In this document: piece by piece, positions 33,768 to 39,393 of the stretch
Layout: each line of letters begins with the position of its first letter
How positions within the stretch are numbered: position 1 is the stretch's first letter
Assembly: GCA_947455215.1 (NCBI GenBank)
Contig: CANGNA010000024.1
Coordinates: 1 to 55,717, forward strand
DNA length: 55,717 nucleotides
Reading direction: 5' to 3'
DNA from: Chitinophagaceae bacterium
GTDB lineage: Bacteria > Bacteroidota > Bacteroidia > Chitinophagales > Chitinophagaceae
Position numbers and translations under genes: made by a program
The notes under the pieces: model-generated
The model's input: the letters and a program-made list of their open reading frames with translations, nothing else
Databases searched by the model: none
Told to the model about the DNA's origin: nothing

Positions 33768-34661
33768 TTACTGCACAATAGCACTGCAAGTGCTATAGGT
33801 GTTGATATCGCCTACCTTCAGGAAATAGATGCCAGGTGTGAGGGACAGATCATTCAAAGAATGGGTACCGAGGCCGGAGCCCATGAAGAAGGTTTCTTTG
33901 CGTACTTCGCGGCCCATGCCATCGTACAGGTATACATTATAGTTGCCGGCATTGGGGTAATCGCCTGCAAAAGATATCTTGCTGGTGGTGCTGCCGCCTA
34001 TTACGCTCAGCTTCATGCTGTGCTTACTCACGTCGGTCACGTTCAAACCCCAAGGGGTCAGGAACACGTTATCTATGGTCCATGCGCCACCGGCTGTGGT
34101 GGTTGATACATAGCGGAAGGCCACATACAACGGCACTGATTTGAACGAAGTGAGGTTGACATAGTGTGTCACCCAACCGGCAGAATCGTCGGGGCCAATA
34201 ACGGGAGCTACCCTGTTAGCAGTGCTCAGATCCATAAAACCATGCAGGTAAACTGAGTCGTTGGGATTTAACCCTGTAGTATCGTAAGTAGGGTTATATA
34301 CTATTTGCATCCTGGCCCCGCTGATATCGTAGCGGGAATCGAAGCGCAGGTACACGCTATCAGGAAACGCTGACAGATCAAGCCGCGGGGTGAATAACCA
34401 GGCGGTATCCATATAATGCGTACCGCCAATATGGCTGTTACAAACAATACCCGGAGTAGCATCCCTGCCGCCTGCCGGGGTGCAGGTCCAGGCTAAGGCA
34501 TTTACGGGTGGTATCACGTTCCATTCCGTCCAGTACAGCGGGTAATTGTTGCCCGTGGTGGCGCAGGAAGCGTTAAAGGTCTCGCTGAGCGACGACACCG
34601 TTTGGGCGTGCGCACAGGCGGCGATGATTGATGTGGTGAGTAAAGCTGCAAATCTCTTCAT
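33768..34661 (-). CDS. Secreted choice-of-anchor J-like protein with T9SS sorting domain
   Basis: 297 residues: signal peptide (1-19), a cleaved-adhesin/choice-of-anchor J-like beta-sandwich (ETFNASC to TTTAGGAWTIDNVFL, residues 26-205), and a T9SS type A domain to the end (SFAGDYPNAGNYNVYLYDGMG, LTPGIYFLKV). The signature AWTIDNV is typical of the J family. Exported through the outer membrane and attached to the cell surface or released. Target unknown. Terminator at 33710. Confidence 0.85.
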   Translation of the reverse strand: MKRFAALLTTSIIAACAHAQTVSSLSETFNASCATTGNNYPLYWTEWNVIPPVNALAWTCTPAGGRDATPGIVCNSHIGGTHYMDTAWLFTPRLDLSAFPDSVYLRFDSRYDISGARMQIVYNPTYDTTGLNPNDSVYLHGFMDLSTANRVAPVIGPDDSAGWVTHYVNLTSFKSVPLYVAFRYVSTTTAGGAWTIDNVFLTPWGLNVTDVSKHSMKLSVIGGSTTSKISFAGDYPNAGNYNVYLYDGMGREVRKETFFMGSGLGTHSLNDLSLTPGIYFLKVGDINTYSTCSAIVQ

Positions 34662-34817
34662 AGGTTTAAGTATTAATATGGCAAATGTATCAGATTAGTA
34701 TCAAAGAATGTGTAGACGTTTTCCCTTAAAAAACGAGCAAAACACACCTTCTCCTCCTATATTGACGTTAGTTTTTGGTCGTTTGTTAGTAACTTAGAAA
34801 AAATATCAGGAGTTTCT

Positions 34818-34841
34818 AACGTTTTCCCGTGTTACATCGTC
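34818..34841 (+). promoter_or_regulatory. ECF-type promoter candidate upstream of the sigma gene
   Basis: AAC (34818-34820), 17 nt, then CGTC (34838-34841), matching the general AAC/CGTC ECF promoter pattern. A related ACGTTTTCCC copy is at 34716-34725. It may allow self-activation by the sigma factor. Confidence 0.4.
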
Positions 34842-34893
34842 ATATTAATTGTGCGCTAAGGAACTGTGTATTTGTGAACTAACTACCTGAGCA

Positions 34894-35490
34894 TTGACCG
34901 AGCAATTGAACATAAGCATTCCACTGACCGCTGCCCCTGACCGGGCAAACACAGAGCAGCATGACCTGCATGTGTTGGTGAAGGAATGTATTGCCCAGTC
35001 GAGAACGGCACAAAAAAAGCTGTACGATACCTATTCACCCGCAGCATATGGCGTAATAAAACGCTATATGTTCAATAACGAGGAAGCCGCCAAGGAGATA
35101 CTGAACGATGCTTTCTATAAAATATTTACCAAGCTGGATCAGTATTCTTTCCAGGGATCGTTTGAGGGGTGGATACGCCGCATAGTGGTGAACACCGTTA
35201 CCGACCACCTGCGTAAGACCATGAACACCGAGCACAATTTTAAAGAAGTGCAACCGGAAGATGGACAAACAGACAGCACGCCGGTGGGCAACCTGTCTTT
35301 CAAAGAGCTGATGGAAGTGGTGCAGACCCTGCCGGAAGCACAGCTGGGGGTGTTCAACCTATTTGTATTTGAAAATTATTCACATAAAGAAATTGGCGCA
35401 TTGCTCAGTATAACGGAAAACAACAGCCGGTGGTACCTGAACGATGCCCGTAGAAGACTTAAAGAAAAAGTAAATTCATTATTGAAGTAA
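34894..35490 (+). CDS. ECF RNA polymerase sigma factor paired with trans-envelope protein
   Basis: 198 residues from TTG (34894); a TGA lies two codons upstream so no longer start is possible. Region 2 (QKKLYDTYSPAAYGVIKRY, EILNDAFYKIFTKLDQY, GSFEGWIRRIVVNTVTDHLR) and region 4 (LPEAQLGVFNLFVFENYSHKEIGALL, NSRWYLNDARRRLKEKV) are complete. The next gene starts 10 nt downstream and encodes the presumed anti-sigma partner. An ECF-like promoter candidate is at 34818. Confidence 0.92.
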   Translation: MTEQLNISIPLTAAPDRANTEQHDLHVLVKECIAQSRTAQKKLYDTYSPAAYGVIKRYMFNNEEAAKEILNDAFYKIFTKLDQYSFQGSFEGWIRRIVVNTVTDHLRKTMNTEHNFKEVQPEDGQTDSTPVGNLSFKELMEVVQTLPEAQLGVFNLFVFENYSHKEIGALLSITENNSRWYLNDARRRLKEKVNSLLK

Positions 35491-35500
35491 TAGAAGTGAG

Positions 35501-38182
35501 ATGAGAAACGATTTGAACAATATTGATGACCTCTTCAGAGCCAGCCTTGGTGGGTACACCGAGGTTCCTCCGCCCGATGTGTGGGTGGCGCTCGAGCAGC
35601 GGTTAGACAATGATAAAAAGAAGCGGCCCTTCGGGTGGTACTGGTTCGTTATGGTCCTGCTGTGCATCGGCATAGGCGGTGGATCATTATTTGCCTGGAG
35701 AACATTGCACCATGGCAATGGTGGCCCTTCTGCAGATGATGGATCTATTGCATCAGTACAGCAGGCTGCAACCCCAGCAACTACCGCCGGCAACACATCG
35801 GCCGCAACGGTAAACAATGACCAGCATACCAATTCCAATTCAGTTCACCGCAAACATCGTAACCATAACAATACATCTACAACAACCGCGAATACAGATG
35901 AACCGGTAACTACCGCGGCCAATAGCGCAGCAGCTGTTATCAATACACCGGCAGCAAGCGGCATGAGCAATGCTGTAAACAGCACACCTGCACTGGCCAG
36001 CGCAGGAGAACCAACCGTAAACAGGCAGGAAGAAAGAGCTAACAACAAGGCTGCTGCTATACAATATATTATCAGCAACAAAAAGCGCAATAATATAGCT
36101 GTAGCCGAAAGCGATGACGAGGAACCTGCAATAGCAAGTAATAATACTGATGCAGGTGAAGAAGATAATGTAACCTTCGGAAAGCGCCCAACGGCTAACT
36201 TAGATGCCCCTAAGCATAACGCTACTGCCACAAGGCAGGCGCAACACACGTATGCGTCAGCAGCACCTGCGGGTAGCAGCAGGCACACTAGCAGTGCAAC
36301 CCGCCGTAGAAACAATAACGCAGTTAACTTTAGCATTGTGGGCAGCAATGGCAATGCGCCACGCCCTATAGTTGCCAATGCACCGGTAGCCCGCAACACC
36401 AAACCTGCTGCCCCGGCTACGGTGGCCAATAAAGGCACATCAACTACTGCACCTGCCGCCGATAACGCTGTAGGCACAGTGGCTATTACTACCCCGGTAG
36501 GCAATACTGCTGCACCAAAGCATACGCGCCCCGCAGCAAAACAAGCCAGTGCTACTCCGGCTATTGCTGCCGCTAAGCCAGCACAACCTGCTGCACCAAC
36601 TGCGGTTAATACACCTGTAGCTAAAGCTGATGCTCCGGCTGACAAGCCTGTAGCCACAAAGCCAACTACAAATATTATCGCTTCAGCTACGCCAGTTAAG
36701 GTGAACACCAAACACGTAGCAAGGGTTACCAAACCAGCTACGCACCCTGCTGTTGCCGCTGCTAAGCCAGTAACTACTAAGCCTGCAATTGCTGCACGCC
36801 CCACTACCACTGCTCAACCAACTGTGGCAACAACTGTAGCTGATGAAAATCCGGCAAAACACACAACAGTAGCCAAGCATCATACTGCAGCTAAAACCGT
36901 CGGCCAATCTGCTAAGCCAACTGCAAACACAGTAGCTGCAAAAAATACCACTACTACTGGCCACGCAAAGCACAACAACACTTTTGTAGCCGGTGCTGCT
37001 CCTACCAAGCATACTGGTGCAGCAGCTCAGCATCAGCAACCAGCTGCTACTGCTGAGGTTGCCGTAAACACCCCGGTTGCTACTGCAGAAAAAGCACCTA
37101 AACGTGCGAAACACAGCGTTGTCACCAAGTCAGCTGTGCCTGCTGTTGCCGCAGTTAAAAAGCCTGCGAAACCTGTAGTTGCCACTAAGCCTGCCAAGAG
37201 CAATAAGCCGGCTGCTACGACACCGACTACAGTAGCTGCTACAACCCCAGCCCAACCAACAGCTGTGGTACCGGCAGCTAAACCAGCTACCACACCGGCA
37301 TCAAAACCTGCAACTCCAGCACCTGCTGCCAAGCCAGTAGACAGCACTCCGGTTGCGGCTACAGTAACTTCACCTCCTACCGACTCTGTAGCACCTAAAA
37401 AAGGCTGGTTGAAGGGTATCAGTTATGGTATAAAAGGCGGGTACGAAGGCGGTATGAGCAAGAACGCATCTAACAAGATCGTTATCTCTCCTTATATCGA
37501 AAAACAATTGTCTTCTAAGTTTTCAATCATGGCACAGCCTGCCTTTAAATTATCTAAGGTGCGTGCGAATAACCTGGACGGCGATCAGAAATACTACAGC
37601 ATAGACCCTAACAGCAAGGTGACCGTACTGGACAGCGCGCTGATACCTATTATACAGAACAACCAACAGATGGGCTACCTGGTAAGGGTGAATCTTGCGT
37701 ACCACGAAAAGCACGACTCTATTGTAAAGTCCTATGCTACCGGTGGCAGCTATATGGAAATGGAAATGCCGATAATGGTGAAATACGCCATCAATAATAA
37801 GATGTCGGTGTATGGCGGTGTGAACCTAAACTACAGCAGGTATGTATCTATTAAAGAGCACACCTTTGCGCAAACGATCACCGTTGATGATACTACCTTC
37901 ACTATACTGCCGGCTGGCAACCCGCCGATACGCAGCGTATTGCAGTATGCGGGCAACAACATCAACAGCTATTCAGGTCCGTTGTACCCTACGCAGTCGG
38001 GTGGCATCTTCAGGATGGGCTTTATGTTGGGCGTGAGCTACGAGTTCCGCAAGCGCTGGATGGTAGATGCATTGATGACCAAAAATGCAGCTAAGGCCAA
38101 TATGCAGGGTGGATACGATGTGAACAAGCCATTGTCGAGCACCTACTTCAGGTTTACGCTTGGCTACAGGCTTTCTAAATAA
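35501..38182 (+). CDS. Candidate dual-membrane-spanning anti-sigma factor: TM helix, disordered linker, outer-membrane barrel
   Basis: 893 residues in one frame. Residues 1-43 are a cytoplasmic head (IDDLFRASLGGYTEVPPPDVWVALEQRL) of the Bacteroidota type with a PPxxVW motif. A membrane helix is at 44-66. Residues about 67-630 are low-complexity Ala/Thr/Pro/Lys/Asn, with Lys/Thr-Pro-Ala units repeated many times, probably disordered. Residues about 633-893 form a porin-like beta-barrel (ISYGIKGGYEGGMS to FRFTLGYRLSK). The layout matches the Dma anti-sigma factors of Bacteroides (from memory). It would bind the upstream sigma and sense the outer membrane. The Ala-rich reverse frames are composition artefacts. 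Confidence 0.82.
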   Translation: MRNDLNNIDDLFRASLGGYTEVPPPDVWVALEQRLDNDKKKRPFGWYWFVMVLLCIGIGGGSLFAWRTLHHGNGGPSADDGSIASVQQAATPATTAGNTSAATVNNDQHTNSNSVHRKHRNHNNTSTTTANTDEPVTTAANSAAAVINTPAASGMSNAVNSTPALASAGEPTVNRQEERANNKAAAIQYIISNKKRNNIAVAESDDEEPAIASNNTDAGEEDNVTFGKRPTANLDAPKHNATATRQAQHTYASAAPAGSSRHTSSATRRRNNNAVNFSIVGSNGNAPRPIVANAPVARNTKPAAPATVANKGTSTTAPAADNAVGTVAITTPVGNTAAPKHTRPAAKQASATPAIAAAKPAQPAAPTAVNTPVAKADAPADKPVATKPTTNIIASATPVKVNTKHVARVTKPATHPAVAAAKPVTTKPAIAARPTTTAQPTVATTVADENPAKHTTVAKHHTAAKTVGQSAKPTANTVAAKNTTTTGHAKHNNTFVAGAAPTKHTGAAAQHQQPAATAEVAVNTPVATAEKAPKRAKHSVVTKSAVPAVAAVKKPAKPVVATKPAKSNKPAATTPTTVAATTPAQPTAVVPAAKPATTPASKPATPAPAAKPVDSTPVAATVTSPPTDSVAPKKGWLKGISYGIKGGYEGGMSKNASNKIVISPYIEKQLSSKFSIMAQPAFKLSKVRANNLDGDQKYYSIDPNSKVTVLDSALIPIIQNNQQMGYLVRVNLAYHEKHDSIVKSYATGGSYMEMEMPIMVKYAINNKMSVYGGVNLNYSRYVSIKEHTFAQTITVDDTTFTILPAGNPPIRSVLQYAGNNINSYSGPLYPTQSGGIFRMGFMLGVSYEFRKRWMVDALMTKNAAKANMQGGYDVNKPLSSTYFRFTLGYRLSK

Positions 38183-38207
38183 GATCTTTAAGTGTGTGCG
38201 TTTAGCA

Positions 38208-38237
38208 GCTCCCGGTTCGTCCGGGAGCATTGTTTTT
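38208..38237 (+). terminator. Intrinsic terminator after the trans-envelope gene
   Basis: GCTCCCGG (38208-38215) pairs with CCGGGAGC (38221-38228), followed by T-rich sequence. Confidence 0.88.
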
Positions 38238-38274
38238 TTAGAAAGTTTATCATTACAAAATACCGTGTAATGCC

Positions 38275-38282
38275 TAAATTTG
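38275..38282 (+). promoter_or_regulatory. -7 box (TAAATTTG) of kdnB
   Basis: TAAATTTG lies 34 nt before the ATG at 38317. Confidence 0.5.
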
Positions 38283-38316
38283 GTCATTATTTTCACGCAC
38301 ATTCAGAATACTACAT

Positions 38317-39393
38317 ATGAAGTTTCGCAATTTTAAGATGGTAGATTACGTGGTGTATGGCCGCGGCTGTTTCGACCAGGTAGATGACATACTGGCCCCA
38401 CAACGCAAGGGCGATGCACCGATCGTGTTCCTGCTGGATCATTATTTTGAAAACAGCGAGGCACTGAAAAGCCGTATACCACTACGTGGCAACGATGCAC
38501 TGATCATAGCCAATGTAGAACACGAACCTAAAACATCTTATGTTGACGAGATAGCACAGTCGCTGAAGGATAAATACGGCACTGTGTCCGGCGTTATAGG
38601 TATCGGCGGCGGTTCTACTATGGACCTAGCCAAGGCGGTATCTATCATGATGACCAACCCCGGCAAAGCACAAGACTACCAGGGCTGGGACCTGGTAAAA
38701 TATCCATCGGTATATAAGGCAGGCATCCCTACCCTTTCCGGTACCGGTGCCGAGGTATCGCGCACAACAGTGCTTACCGGCCCTACCCGCAAGCTGGGCA
38801 TGAACAGCGACTTTACGCCATTCAACCAGATAGTACTGGACCCTGCCCTGATAAAGGATGCACCCAAGAACCAGCGCTTCTACACCGGCATGGACTGCTT
38901 CATACATTGCGTAGAGTCCCTGAAAGGCACATTCATCAATGAATTTAGCCGCTCTTACGGCGAGAAAGCACAGGCACTCTGCGAGGAGATATACCTGCAC
39001 AAGGATGAGTGGAACGACGAGAGCGACGAGCAGCTGATGATGGCATCTTACGCCGGCGGTATGAGCATTGCTTACTCCCAGGTAGGTGTAGCACACGCTG
39101 TAAGCTATGGCCTCAGCTACCTGCTGGGCACCAAGCACGGCCTGGGCAACTGTATCGTGTTCAATCACCTGCAGGAGTATTATCCTGAAGGTGTGGAGAC
39201 CTTCCACAAGATGGTAAAGAAGAACGACATCTACATACCCGAAGGTATTTGTAAGGGACTCACAGATGAGCAGTTCGATGTTATGATCAATGTATCGCTG
39301 GGCATGGCGCCACTGTGGGAAAACGCACTGGGCAAAGACTGGCAGCAGCAAATGACACGCGAAAAACTGCGTGCGCTGTACGAAAAATTGTAA
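38317..39393 (+). CDS. kdnB: Kdo 8-oxidase (iron-type alcohol dehydrogenase family), KdnB-like
   Basis: 358 residues. The Rossmann-type GGGS motif is at 97-100 and metal ligands are Asp193, His197, His260 and His274. From memory the sequence follows Shewanella KdnB closely in GIPTLSGTGAEVSRT, FYTGMDCFIHCVESL, and SQVGVAHAVSYGLSYLLG. KdnB oxidises Kdo at C8 so that KdnA can aminate it to 8-amino-Kdo, a lipopolysaccharide sugar. No KdnA-type aminotransferase is in the window, so the partner must be elsewhere or the substrate differs. Monocistronic. Confidence 0.85.
   Translation: MKFRNFKMVDYVVYGRGCFDQVDDILAPQRKGDAPIVFLLDHYFENSEALKSRIPLRGNDALIIANVEHEPKTSYVDEIAQSLKDKYGTVSGVIGIGGGSTMDLAKAVSIMMTNPGKAQDYQGWDLVKYPSVYKAGIPTLSGTGAEVSRTTVLTGPTRKLGMNSDFTPFNQIVLDPALIKDAPKNQRFYTGMDCFIHCVESLKGTFINEFSRSYGEKAQALCEEIYLHKDEWNDESDEQLMMASYAGGMSIAYSQVGVAHAVSYGLSYLLGTKHGLGNCIVFNHLQEYYPEGVETFHKMVKKNDIYIPEGICKGLTDEQFDVMINVSLGMAPLWENALGKDWQQQMTREKLRALYEKL

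What the first reader, a model, noticed from the sequence alone, without database searches (positions are those of the whole stretch)
34818..38182. ECF sigma factor paired with a probable dual-membrane-spanning anti-sigma factor
One 893-residue frame combines a cytoplasmic head with PPPDVW, a single membrane helix, about 565 low-complexity residues and a C-terminal barrel, 10 nt after an ECF sigma gene. An inner-membrane anchor plus an outer-membrane barrel in one chain would let outer-membrane state report directly to sigma. This matches the Dma/Das idea known from Bacteroides (recalled, not checked) but in a different lineage and with an unusually long Ala/Pro/Lys linker.
Basis: partly seen in the sequence, partly recalled or inferred. 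Interest (0 to 1): 0.9.

Follow-up and report, generated by a model that had tools for sequence, protein, structure and literature searches.

The report
Sigma switch spanning both membranes
A bacterium appears to use one very long protein, anchored in both of its membranes, to hold back a gene-control factor that probably switches on proteins displayed on the cell surface; such two-membrane regulators are known from gut bacteria, but this link to surface secretion may be new.

Summary
An ECF sigma gene (34894-35490) is followed 10 nt later by an 893-residue frame: head with VPPPDVW, one membrane helix, a 576-residue Ala/Thr/Pro-rich linker, and a C-terminal outer-membrane-type barrel. It passes the sequence tests for the published Dma/Das kind: its head matches two Bacteroides faecis Dma-like heads, and its sigma groups with the only four of 30 B. 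faecis ECF sigma loci examined that have a barrel partner. It is another family of the same phylum, not a new kind; its linker is the second longest of 19 relatives (169-633). New here: an ECF-type promoter, CTAAC-N17-CGTC, lies upstream of the sigma gene in close relatives (16 of 19 strictly, 19 of 19 relaxed). In 12 genomes with the pair, 33 of 97 motif matches precede genes for type IX secretion (T9SS) cargo; 11 are the sigma gene itself, 4 a second sigma gene, 9 other exported proteins, 40 none of these. In four relatives without the barrel, 0 of 8. The window's divergent neighbour (33768-34661) is such a cargo gene with its own site. Best reading: an outer-membrane-anchored anti-sigma controls a self-activating sigma that drives T9SS cargo. 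Topology, sigma binding, signal and transcription are untested.

The parts
34816..34841 (+). ECF-type promoter-like element CTAAC-N17-CGTC of the sigma/anti-sigma operon
   Evidence: TAAC-N17-CGTC upstream of the sigma gene in 16 of 19 close relatives and 0 of 28 other pairs; listed
34764..34789 (-). Second CTAAC-N17-CGTC element, facing the divergent gene
   Evidence: the same facing pair of sites stands in the same-genus genome
33768..34661 (-). Divergent gene, 297 aa: choice-of-anchor J domain and T9SS type A sorting tail; predicted target
   Evidence: NF038128 34.7 bits (cut-off 30), TIGR04183 24.1 bits (cut-off 23); start 102 nt from the site
34894..35490 (+). ECF sigma factor, 198 aa, TTG start
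   Evidence: Pfam and NCBIfam; tree
35501..38182 (+). Dma-like anti-sigma factor, 893 aa
35501..35635 (+). Cytoplasmic anti-sigma head (residues 1-45), VPPPDVW
   Evidence: alignment of 17 heads; profile match to B. faecis heads, probability 97.2; two short helices in the model, low confidence
35642..35698 (+). Membrane helix, about residues 48-66
   Evidence: hydropathy; helix 44-70 in the model
35699..37426 (+). Low-complexity linker, residues 67-642 (576 aa)
37427..38179 (+). C-terminal outer-membrane-type beta-barrel, residues 643-893
   Evidence: PF13568 on the last 273 residues; model pLDDT 89.5; Foldseek; alternating hydropathy in 7 of 9 strands tested
38208..38239 (+). Terminator-like hairpin and T-run after the operon
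   Evidence: 1 found in 38100-38330, 0.1 expected from shuffles

Best explanation
This is a sigma/anti-sigma switch of the Dma/Das kind. The cytoplasmic head (residues 1-45) holds the ECF sigma factor; one helix anchors the chain in the inner membrane; a 576-residue flexible linker crosses the periplasm; the C-terminal barrel sits in the outer membrane. A change at the outer membrane, most likely a barrel that is disturbed or not assembled and then triggers proteolysis of the chain, frees the sigma. Free sigma reads CTAAC-N17-CGTC promoters: its own operon, the divergent T9SS cargo gene, other T9SS cargo and lipoprotein genes, and probably a second ECF sigma gene. It thereby adjusts what the cell exports to its surface. 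Shown by computation: layout, kinship, the promoter-like element and where its copies lie. Inferred: sigma binding, topology in the cell, direct transcription, the signal and the release step (the proteolysis step alone I put at about 0.45).
For: Layout and conserved gene pair. Head similarity to B. faecis Dma-like heads, probability 97.2. Sigma clade: 49 sequences including exactly the four B. faecis sigmas with barrel partners, support 0.88; the window's 19-member clade 1.0; none of the other 26 B. faecis sigma loci looked at has a barrel partner. Barrel model and matches. Promoter in 16 of 19 relatives. Motif matches before T9SS cargo genes: 8 of 25 in the own genome, 4 of 16 in the same-genus genome, 10 of 25 in four genomes of three other genera, 11 of 31 in six further genomes; 0 of 8 in four family genomes without a barrel match; 9 matches for two other spacings together in the own genome against 25. 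A Phocaeicola relative answers toxin and envelope stress (PMC9308784, passages).
Against: The barrel profile does not match the B. faecis Dma barrels (probability 1); TM-scores are low; the same-genus protein gets no Pfam hit at E 0.01. 40 of 97 motif matches are inside frames, at contig edges or without a convincing gene. Raw match counts do not exceed the reversed pattern outside the own genome (16 vs 42, 25 vs 35, 31 vs 38). One of the 12 genomes (G062) has no T9SS match. The four control genomes were not checked for T9SS and have fewer sites in all. No expression or binding data.
Confidence: 0.72

Rival explanations
1. Same pair and same targets, but release happens by ligand or protein binding at the barrel's outer loops, without proteolysis (glycan or surface sensing, as its authors propose for Dma2).
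For: The authors of the Dma2 paper hypothesise glycan sensing at the outer membrane surface (discussion read). The barrel is modelled with long outer hairpins.
Against: Nothing here identifies a ligand; the Phocaeicola relative responds to envelope damage (passages).
Confidence: 0.3
2. The C-terminal domain is a beta-domain that stays in the periplasm or is not inserted, so the protein is an ordinary inner-membrane anti-sigma with a large periplasmic sensor.
For: Low TM-scores; whole-protein Pfam score below cut-off; some relatives of the pair end in other kinds of tail (L095, L101, L105, read by eye).
Against: PF13568 and PF13505 matches, alternating hydropathy, and a Foldseek list of 50 that is outer-membrane barrels throughout; Dma proteins are described as spanning both membranes (PMC13088901).
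Confidence: 0.12
3. The CTAAC-N17-CGTC sites before T9SS genes are read by another ECF sigma with a similar promoter, and this pair controls only itself.
For: The own genome has at least five related sigmas and ECF promoters resemble each other; the second sigma gene itself has a site.
Against: The strict element is upstream of 16 of 19 sigmas of this clade and 0 of 28 other pairs, including two paralogue pairs of the own genome; four genomes without the barrel have 8 sites and none before a T9SS gene.
Confidence: 0.2
4. Chance frame: a low-complexity run that happens to be open, joined to an unrelated barrel gene.
For: Linker is low-complexity and other frames in it are open too.
Against: Same layout in 25 of 28 loci, 953-aa same-genus copy, conserved head.
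Confidence: 0.01

Closest known systems
Dma/Das of Bacteroides thetaiotaomicron (Dma1/Das1, Dma2/Das2, Dma3)
   Same: Anti-sigma head, one helix, disordered tether, C-terminal barrel, ECF sigma gene next to it (PMC13088901); heads match by profile and sigmas share a clade, tested on B. faecis.
   Different: Linker 576 residues here; by eye about 125 in the shorter of the two B. faecis proteins. Barrel not alignable by profile. Reported effects there are vesicles and glycan loci; here the predicted targets are T9SS cargo and lipoproteins.
EcfO/Reo of Bacteroides fragilis and the M0N98_03760/03761 pair of Phocaeicola vulgatus
   Same: ECF sigma with a large anti-sigma predicted to end in an outer-membrane barrel (PMC9308784, passages; the EcfO paper itself not read, name Reo recalled).
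   Different: Studied responses there are oxidative stress and toxin or envelope stress with longer O-antigen; no T9SS link in the passages seen.
SigP of Porphyromonas gingivalis and motif SM6 of Flavobacterium psychrophilum
   Same: ECF sigma control connected with T9SS (PMC4800418 and PMC9723704, passages); SM6 has a CGT -10 box and one sigma/anti-sigma pair among its genes.
   Different: They act on T9SS machinery genes; SigP works with the response regulator PorX and the paper's text has no 'anti-sigma'. Here the sites precede cargo genes.

Membership tests
[quoted passage not shown]
   hhalign of 17 heads against two B. faecis Dma-like heads: probability 97.2, E 2.9e-11 over 38 columns. 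B. faecis stands in for B. thetaiotaomicron, whose sequences were not obtained.
[quoted passage not shown]
   Hydropathy and model; by prediction only.
[quoted passage not shown]
   576 residues, 5% ILMFWYC, A/T/P rich; composition only, no disorder program run.
[quoted passage not shown]
   PF13568 above cut-off on the tail only, model, Foldseek list; low TM-scores, and no profile match to the B. faecis barrels.
[quoted passage not shown]
   Adjacent ECF sigma met. No ECF21 model was at hand; the tree places the sigma with the four B. faecis sigmas that have barrels.
[quoted passage not shown]
   Needs fractionation and binding or deletion experiments.
FecR-type anti-sigma factors | FecR domain | tested here: not met
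   No FecR match at E 1; FecR was found in 7 of 10 other B. faecis partners scanned, so the library detects it.
SigP-type T9SS regulators | Orthology to PGN_0274 and control through PorX | not tested
   SigP sequence was not obtained.

The most novel reading that the evidence does not exclude
One polypeptide reaching from the outer membrane to an RNA polymerase sigma factor controls which proteins the type IX secretion system puts on the cell surface: a direct outer-membrane-to-cargo-gene loop with autoregulation and a downstream second sigma, conserved over several genera outside Bacteroides.
Probability: 0.52. Interest if true: 0.78.

Novelty: new variant of a known kind. Interest (0 to 1): 0.62.

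Why it matters
How bacteria with T9SS match the supply of surface cargo to the state of the outer membrane is, to my knowledge, open. If this holds, a two-gene switch and a named promoter motif make it testable. It would also widen the Dma family, so far studied in Bacteroides and tied to vesicles and glycan loci, to a secretion regulon, and gives a natural series of linker lengths (169-633 residues in 19 relatives) for asking what the tether does.

Tried and rejected
Naming a relative: one scan of genome contigs with a 22-base 16S fragment aimed at B. thetaiotaomicron returned only Bacteroides faecis MAJ27, used as a stand-in.

Barrel profile against the two B. faecis Dma-like proteins: nothing; against one other relative's tail: weak, probability 27.

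Other barrel-matching frames of the own genome on C84, C6 and C8 had no ECF sigma hit near them; those on C84 and C6 look like OmpA-type secreted proteins by eye. Two paralogue pairs exist on C28 and C3.

The first sigma tree lost minus-strand loci and was redone. The single-chain sigma-barrel proteins of B. faecis looked new until the Dma2 paper's discussion showed that Dma3 is described that way. Lipoprotein anchoring was rejected by eye (no lipobox at the only Cys in the helix), a cleaved signal peptide because a conserved 45-residue head precedes the helix.

Rows dropped: 3 of 28 barrel loci cut at contig ends had no sigma in view. L032 dropped from the linker count, leaving 19 of 20. The 19-member clade was set by identity to the window sigma; L088 (44.2%) was left out by hand and the tree put it elsewhere. 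Of 33 B. faecis sigma hits, 30 had loci, 28 entered the tree, and partners were looked at for 30; 6 of these had no downstream frame within 200 nt. The relaxed promoter pattern was written after seeing the three strict misses. The pattern was wider in the own and same-genus genomes than in the others. In my notes I first wrote 24 of 28 loci with a sigma; the recount gives 25. A chance figure for the four genomes used 10 sites although one lies 248 nt away and assumed T9SS gene numbers, so I do not use it.
Full report
1. Observation. The window holds an ECF sigma gene (34894-35490, TTG start) and, 10 nt later, an 893-codon frame (35501-38182). The sigma matches Sigma70_r2 and Sigma70_r4_2 above cut-off. 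The long frame has a head with VPPPDVW, a hydrophobic stretch at about residues 48-66, a 576-residue linker (A 23%, T 15%, P 10%) and a barrel region from about residue 643. OMP_b-brl_2 scores 24.9 bits on the whole protein (cut-off 27) and 28.9 on the last 273 residues. A terminator-like hairpin follows at 38208-38228.

2. It is a conserved pair. A search of 147 same-family genomes with the barrel finds 24 with a match, the own genome included. Of the 28 loci, 25 have an ECF sigma gene directly upstream; three frames begin at a contig edge. In 17 aligned heads M1, D9, W28 and L35 are invariant, E21 and P23 nearly so. The same-genus protein has 953 residues; the two linkers align end to end at 25% identity with filters off, so shared composition counts.

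3. The barrel. AlphaFold2 with 20 sequences gives a model that is nearly all strand, mean pLDDT 89.5, pTM 0.72. All 50 listed Foldseek matches (of 864) are outer-membrane barrels such as FapF, OmpA, Ail, NanC, FadL and autotransporters, E 2.8e-6 to 4.1e-4; query TM-scores are only 0.14-0.36, so closure of the barrel is not proven. Seven of nine strands tested alternate in hydropathy by 1.0 or more. The head model has helices 6-16 and 25-37 and a membrane helix 44-70, pLDDT 68, pTM 0.29. The same-genus protein itself gets no Pfam hit at E 0.01.

4. The linker. Among 19 relatives it runs from 169 to 633 residues, median 302; the window is second longest. By a scaling formula recalled from the literature on disordered chains, about 565 residues would span some 17 nm when relaxed and about 200 nm when stretched. 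It can cross a periplasm without tension, which speaks against a taut mechanical link (inference).

5. Relation to Dma/Das. Of the Dma2 paper (PMC13088901) I read the abstract, introduction, discussion, part of the reference list and found passages. It gives the Dma layout as anti-sigma domain, helix, disordered tether and barrel, beside ECF21 sigma genes, only in Bacteroidota; Dma3 carries its sigma at its own N-terminus. The Dma1 paper is not held. In B. faecis MAJ27 the window sigma has 33 hits; the first four have E 8.7e-25, 5.0e-21, 4.1e-19 and 8.1e-13, the fifth 6.5e-12, so rank alone does not set the fourth apart. These four are two pairs with Dma-like partners (419 and 350 aa) and two single chains sigma-helix-linker-barrel (551 and 554 aa), the Dma3 layout. 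Of the other 26 loci none shows a barrel partner: 10 partners were scanned, 7 are FecR, 1 has carboxypeptidase-regulatory and weak TonB domains, 2 have no match; the rest are short or have no frame within 200 nt. Three hits without loci were not looked at. In a tree of 73 sigmas the window's 19-member clade has support 1.0, and the smallest clade that takes in these four holds 49 sequences (all 45 relatives collected by similarity, these four, and none of the other 24 B. faecis sigmas), support 0.88. Heads align by profile, probability 97.2; barrels do not, probability 1. The pair is thus related to Dma/Das, not a one-to-one counterpart of Dma1 or Dma2.

6. Promoter. In 300 nt upstream plus 90 nt of the sigma gene, TAAC-N(15-18)-CGTC occurs in 16 of 19 clade members, always with 17 bases between, and in 0 of 28 other pairs; letter-shuffled expectation is 0.00-0.055 per sequence. 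A relaxed form, written after seeing the three misses, occurs in 19 of 19 and 4 of 28. In the window it is 34816-34841; a second site, 34789-34764, faces the divergent gene, and the same-genus genome has the same two facing sites.

7. Predicted targets, own genome. CTAAC-N17-CGTC has 25 matches, against 14 for the reversed pattern and 9 for two other spacings together (reversed 32). Of the 25: 8 precede genes with a T9SS sorting tail above cut-off (7 type A, 1 type B, 11-109 nt away), 5 precede lipoprotein-like genes (4 by a simple lipobox pattern, 1 by eye), 1 is the sigma gene, 1 a second ECF sigma (187 nt), 6 lie inside reading frames, 4 have no convincing gene. At least 150 frames of the genome carry a type A tail (150 of 202 candidates scored); if all 202 were real, 0.09 of 25 sites would fall within 150 nt before one by chance. 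None of the 9 spacing-control matches precedes a T9SS gene start; one lies inside a frame with a T9SS-like tail.

8. Predicted targets, other genomes. Same genus: 16 matches; 4 T9SS, 2 lipoprotein-like (one a 39-residue frame), 1 self, 1 second sigma, 8 other. Four genomes of three other genera, narrower pattern CTAACR-N16-CGTCW: 25 matches; 10 T9SS above cut-off (one 248 nt away), 3 self, 1 with a tail at 20.2 bits below the cut-off of 23, 11 other. Six more genomes, as a replicate: 31 matches; 11 T9SS (23-65 nt), 6 self, 2 second sigma (220 and 256 nt), 2 other exported, 10 other; one genome (G062) has no T9SS match. Together 12 genomes, 97 matches: 33 T9SS, 11 self, 4 second sigma, 9 other exported, 40 none of these. 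Some are near-duplicates (two adjacent paralogues in G132), so they are not all independent. Four family genomes without a barrel match, chosen for few contigs: 8 matches, 6 inside frames, 0 before a T9SS or exported gene; these genomes were not checked for T9SS. Outside the own genome the raw counts do not exceed the reversed pattern (16 vs 42, 25 vs 35, 31 vs 38); the signal lies in where the sites stand.

9. Gene order. In three genomes (G031, G136, G050) a site lies just after the anti-sigma gene and precedes a T9SS cargo gene; in G132 the site lies one gene further on. The second sigma gene has a site at 187-256 nt in four genomes of two genera; two pairs of its products compared are 83% and 68% identical. 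At that distance the link is less certain.

10. How it works, most likely. Shown by computation: layout, kinship, promoter-like element, placement. Inferred: the head holds sigma; the barrel anchors in the outer membrane; outer-membrane disturbance leads to proteolysis and frees sigma; sigma raises its own operon, T9SS cargo, lipoproteins and probably a second sigma. The Phocaeicola relative is induced by a toxin, its authors suspect envelope stress, and it changes the surface (PMC9308784, passages), which favours a damage signal. A ligand-sensing barrel, as proposed for Dma2, is the chief rival.

11. Novelty. A known kind, a new variant. ECF control of T9SS machinery is in print (SigP, PMC4800418; SM6, PMC9723704; passages). 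A Dma-type pair tied to T9SS cargo did not turn up in these searches of the held library: 'dual membrane-spanning anti-sigma' (12 papers, 11 listed; of these I opened the Dma2 paper and passages of the TamL paper, which only cites it), ECF21 with anti-sigma (3 papers, 2 listed), type IX secretion with sigma factor, ECF and regulat (41 papers, 15 listed, two opened), anti-sigma with type IX secretion, outer membrane and Chitinophaga (1 paper, listing only), T9SS with sorting domain, anti-sigma factor and regulon (0 papers), and Dma1 with related terms (7 papers, 6 listed). The Dma1 paper and all supplements were out of reach, so absence from print is not shown.

Noticed in passing
L034:6007-8070:- and L035:5975-7987:- (genomes G132, G042); L098:3355-4128:+ (G004): Anti-sigma proteins with three (L034) or two (L035, L098) tandem copies of the head motif before the membrane helix, with one sigma gene upstream: possibly several sigma-binding sites on one chain. 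L098 is 258 aa.
   Followed up: partly
L139:3264-4916:- and L140:2826-4487:- (Bacteroides faecis MAJ27): Single chains with ECF sigma regions 2 and 4, a hydrophobic stretch, a linker and an OMP_b-brl_2 barrel (551 and 554 aa). This is the layout described in print for Dma3.
   Followed up: yes
L095:3452-4294:+, L101:2891-5203:+, L105:2862-3863:+: Partners of related sigmas with head and helix but C-termini that by eye resemble FlgD-like or T9SS-type tails instead of barrels: the head seems to be combined with different outer parts.
   Followed up: no
window 34894-34896: The sigma gene has no in-frame ATG before the conserved region 2 start, so it must begin at TTG or GTG; several relatives also seem to start at TTG or GTG, though my script picks the most upstream start.
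   Followed up: no
L200:2932-3507:- (own genome C5), L211:3575-4150:-, L300:1544-2125:-, L301:1986-2567:-: A second ECF sigma gene with a CTAAC-N17-CGTC site 187-256 nt upstream in four genomes of two genera: a possible sigma cascade.
   Followed up: partly
L086:4912-7230:+ and L087:4816-6051:+ (own genome C28 and C3): Two further sigma/anti-sigma pairs of the same superfamily in the window's genome, 773 aa (PF13568 28.3 bits, above cut-off) and 412 aa (no Pfam match).
   Followed up: partly
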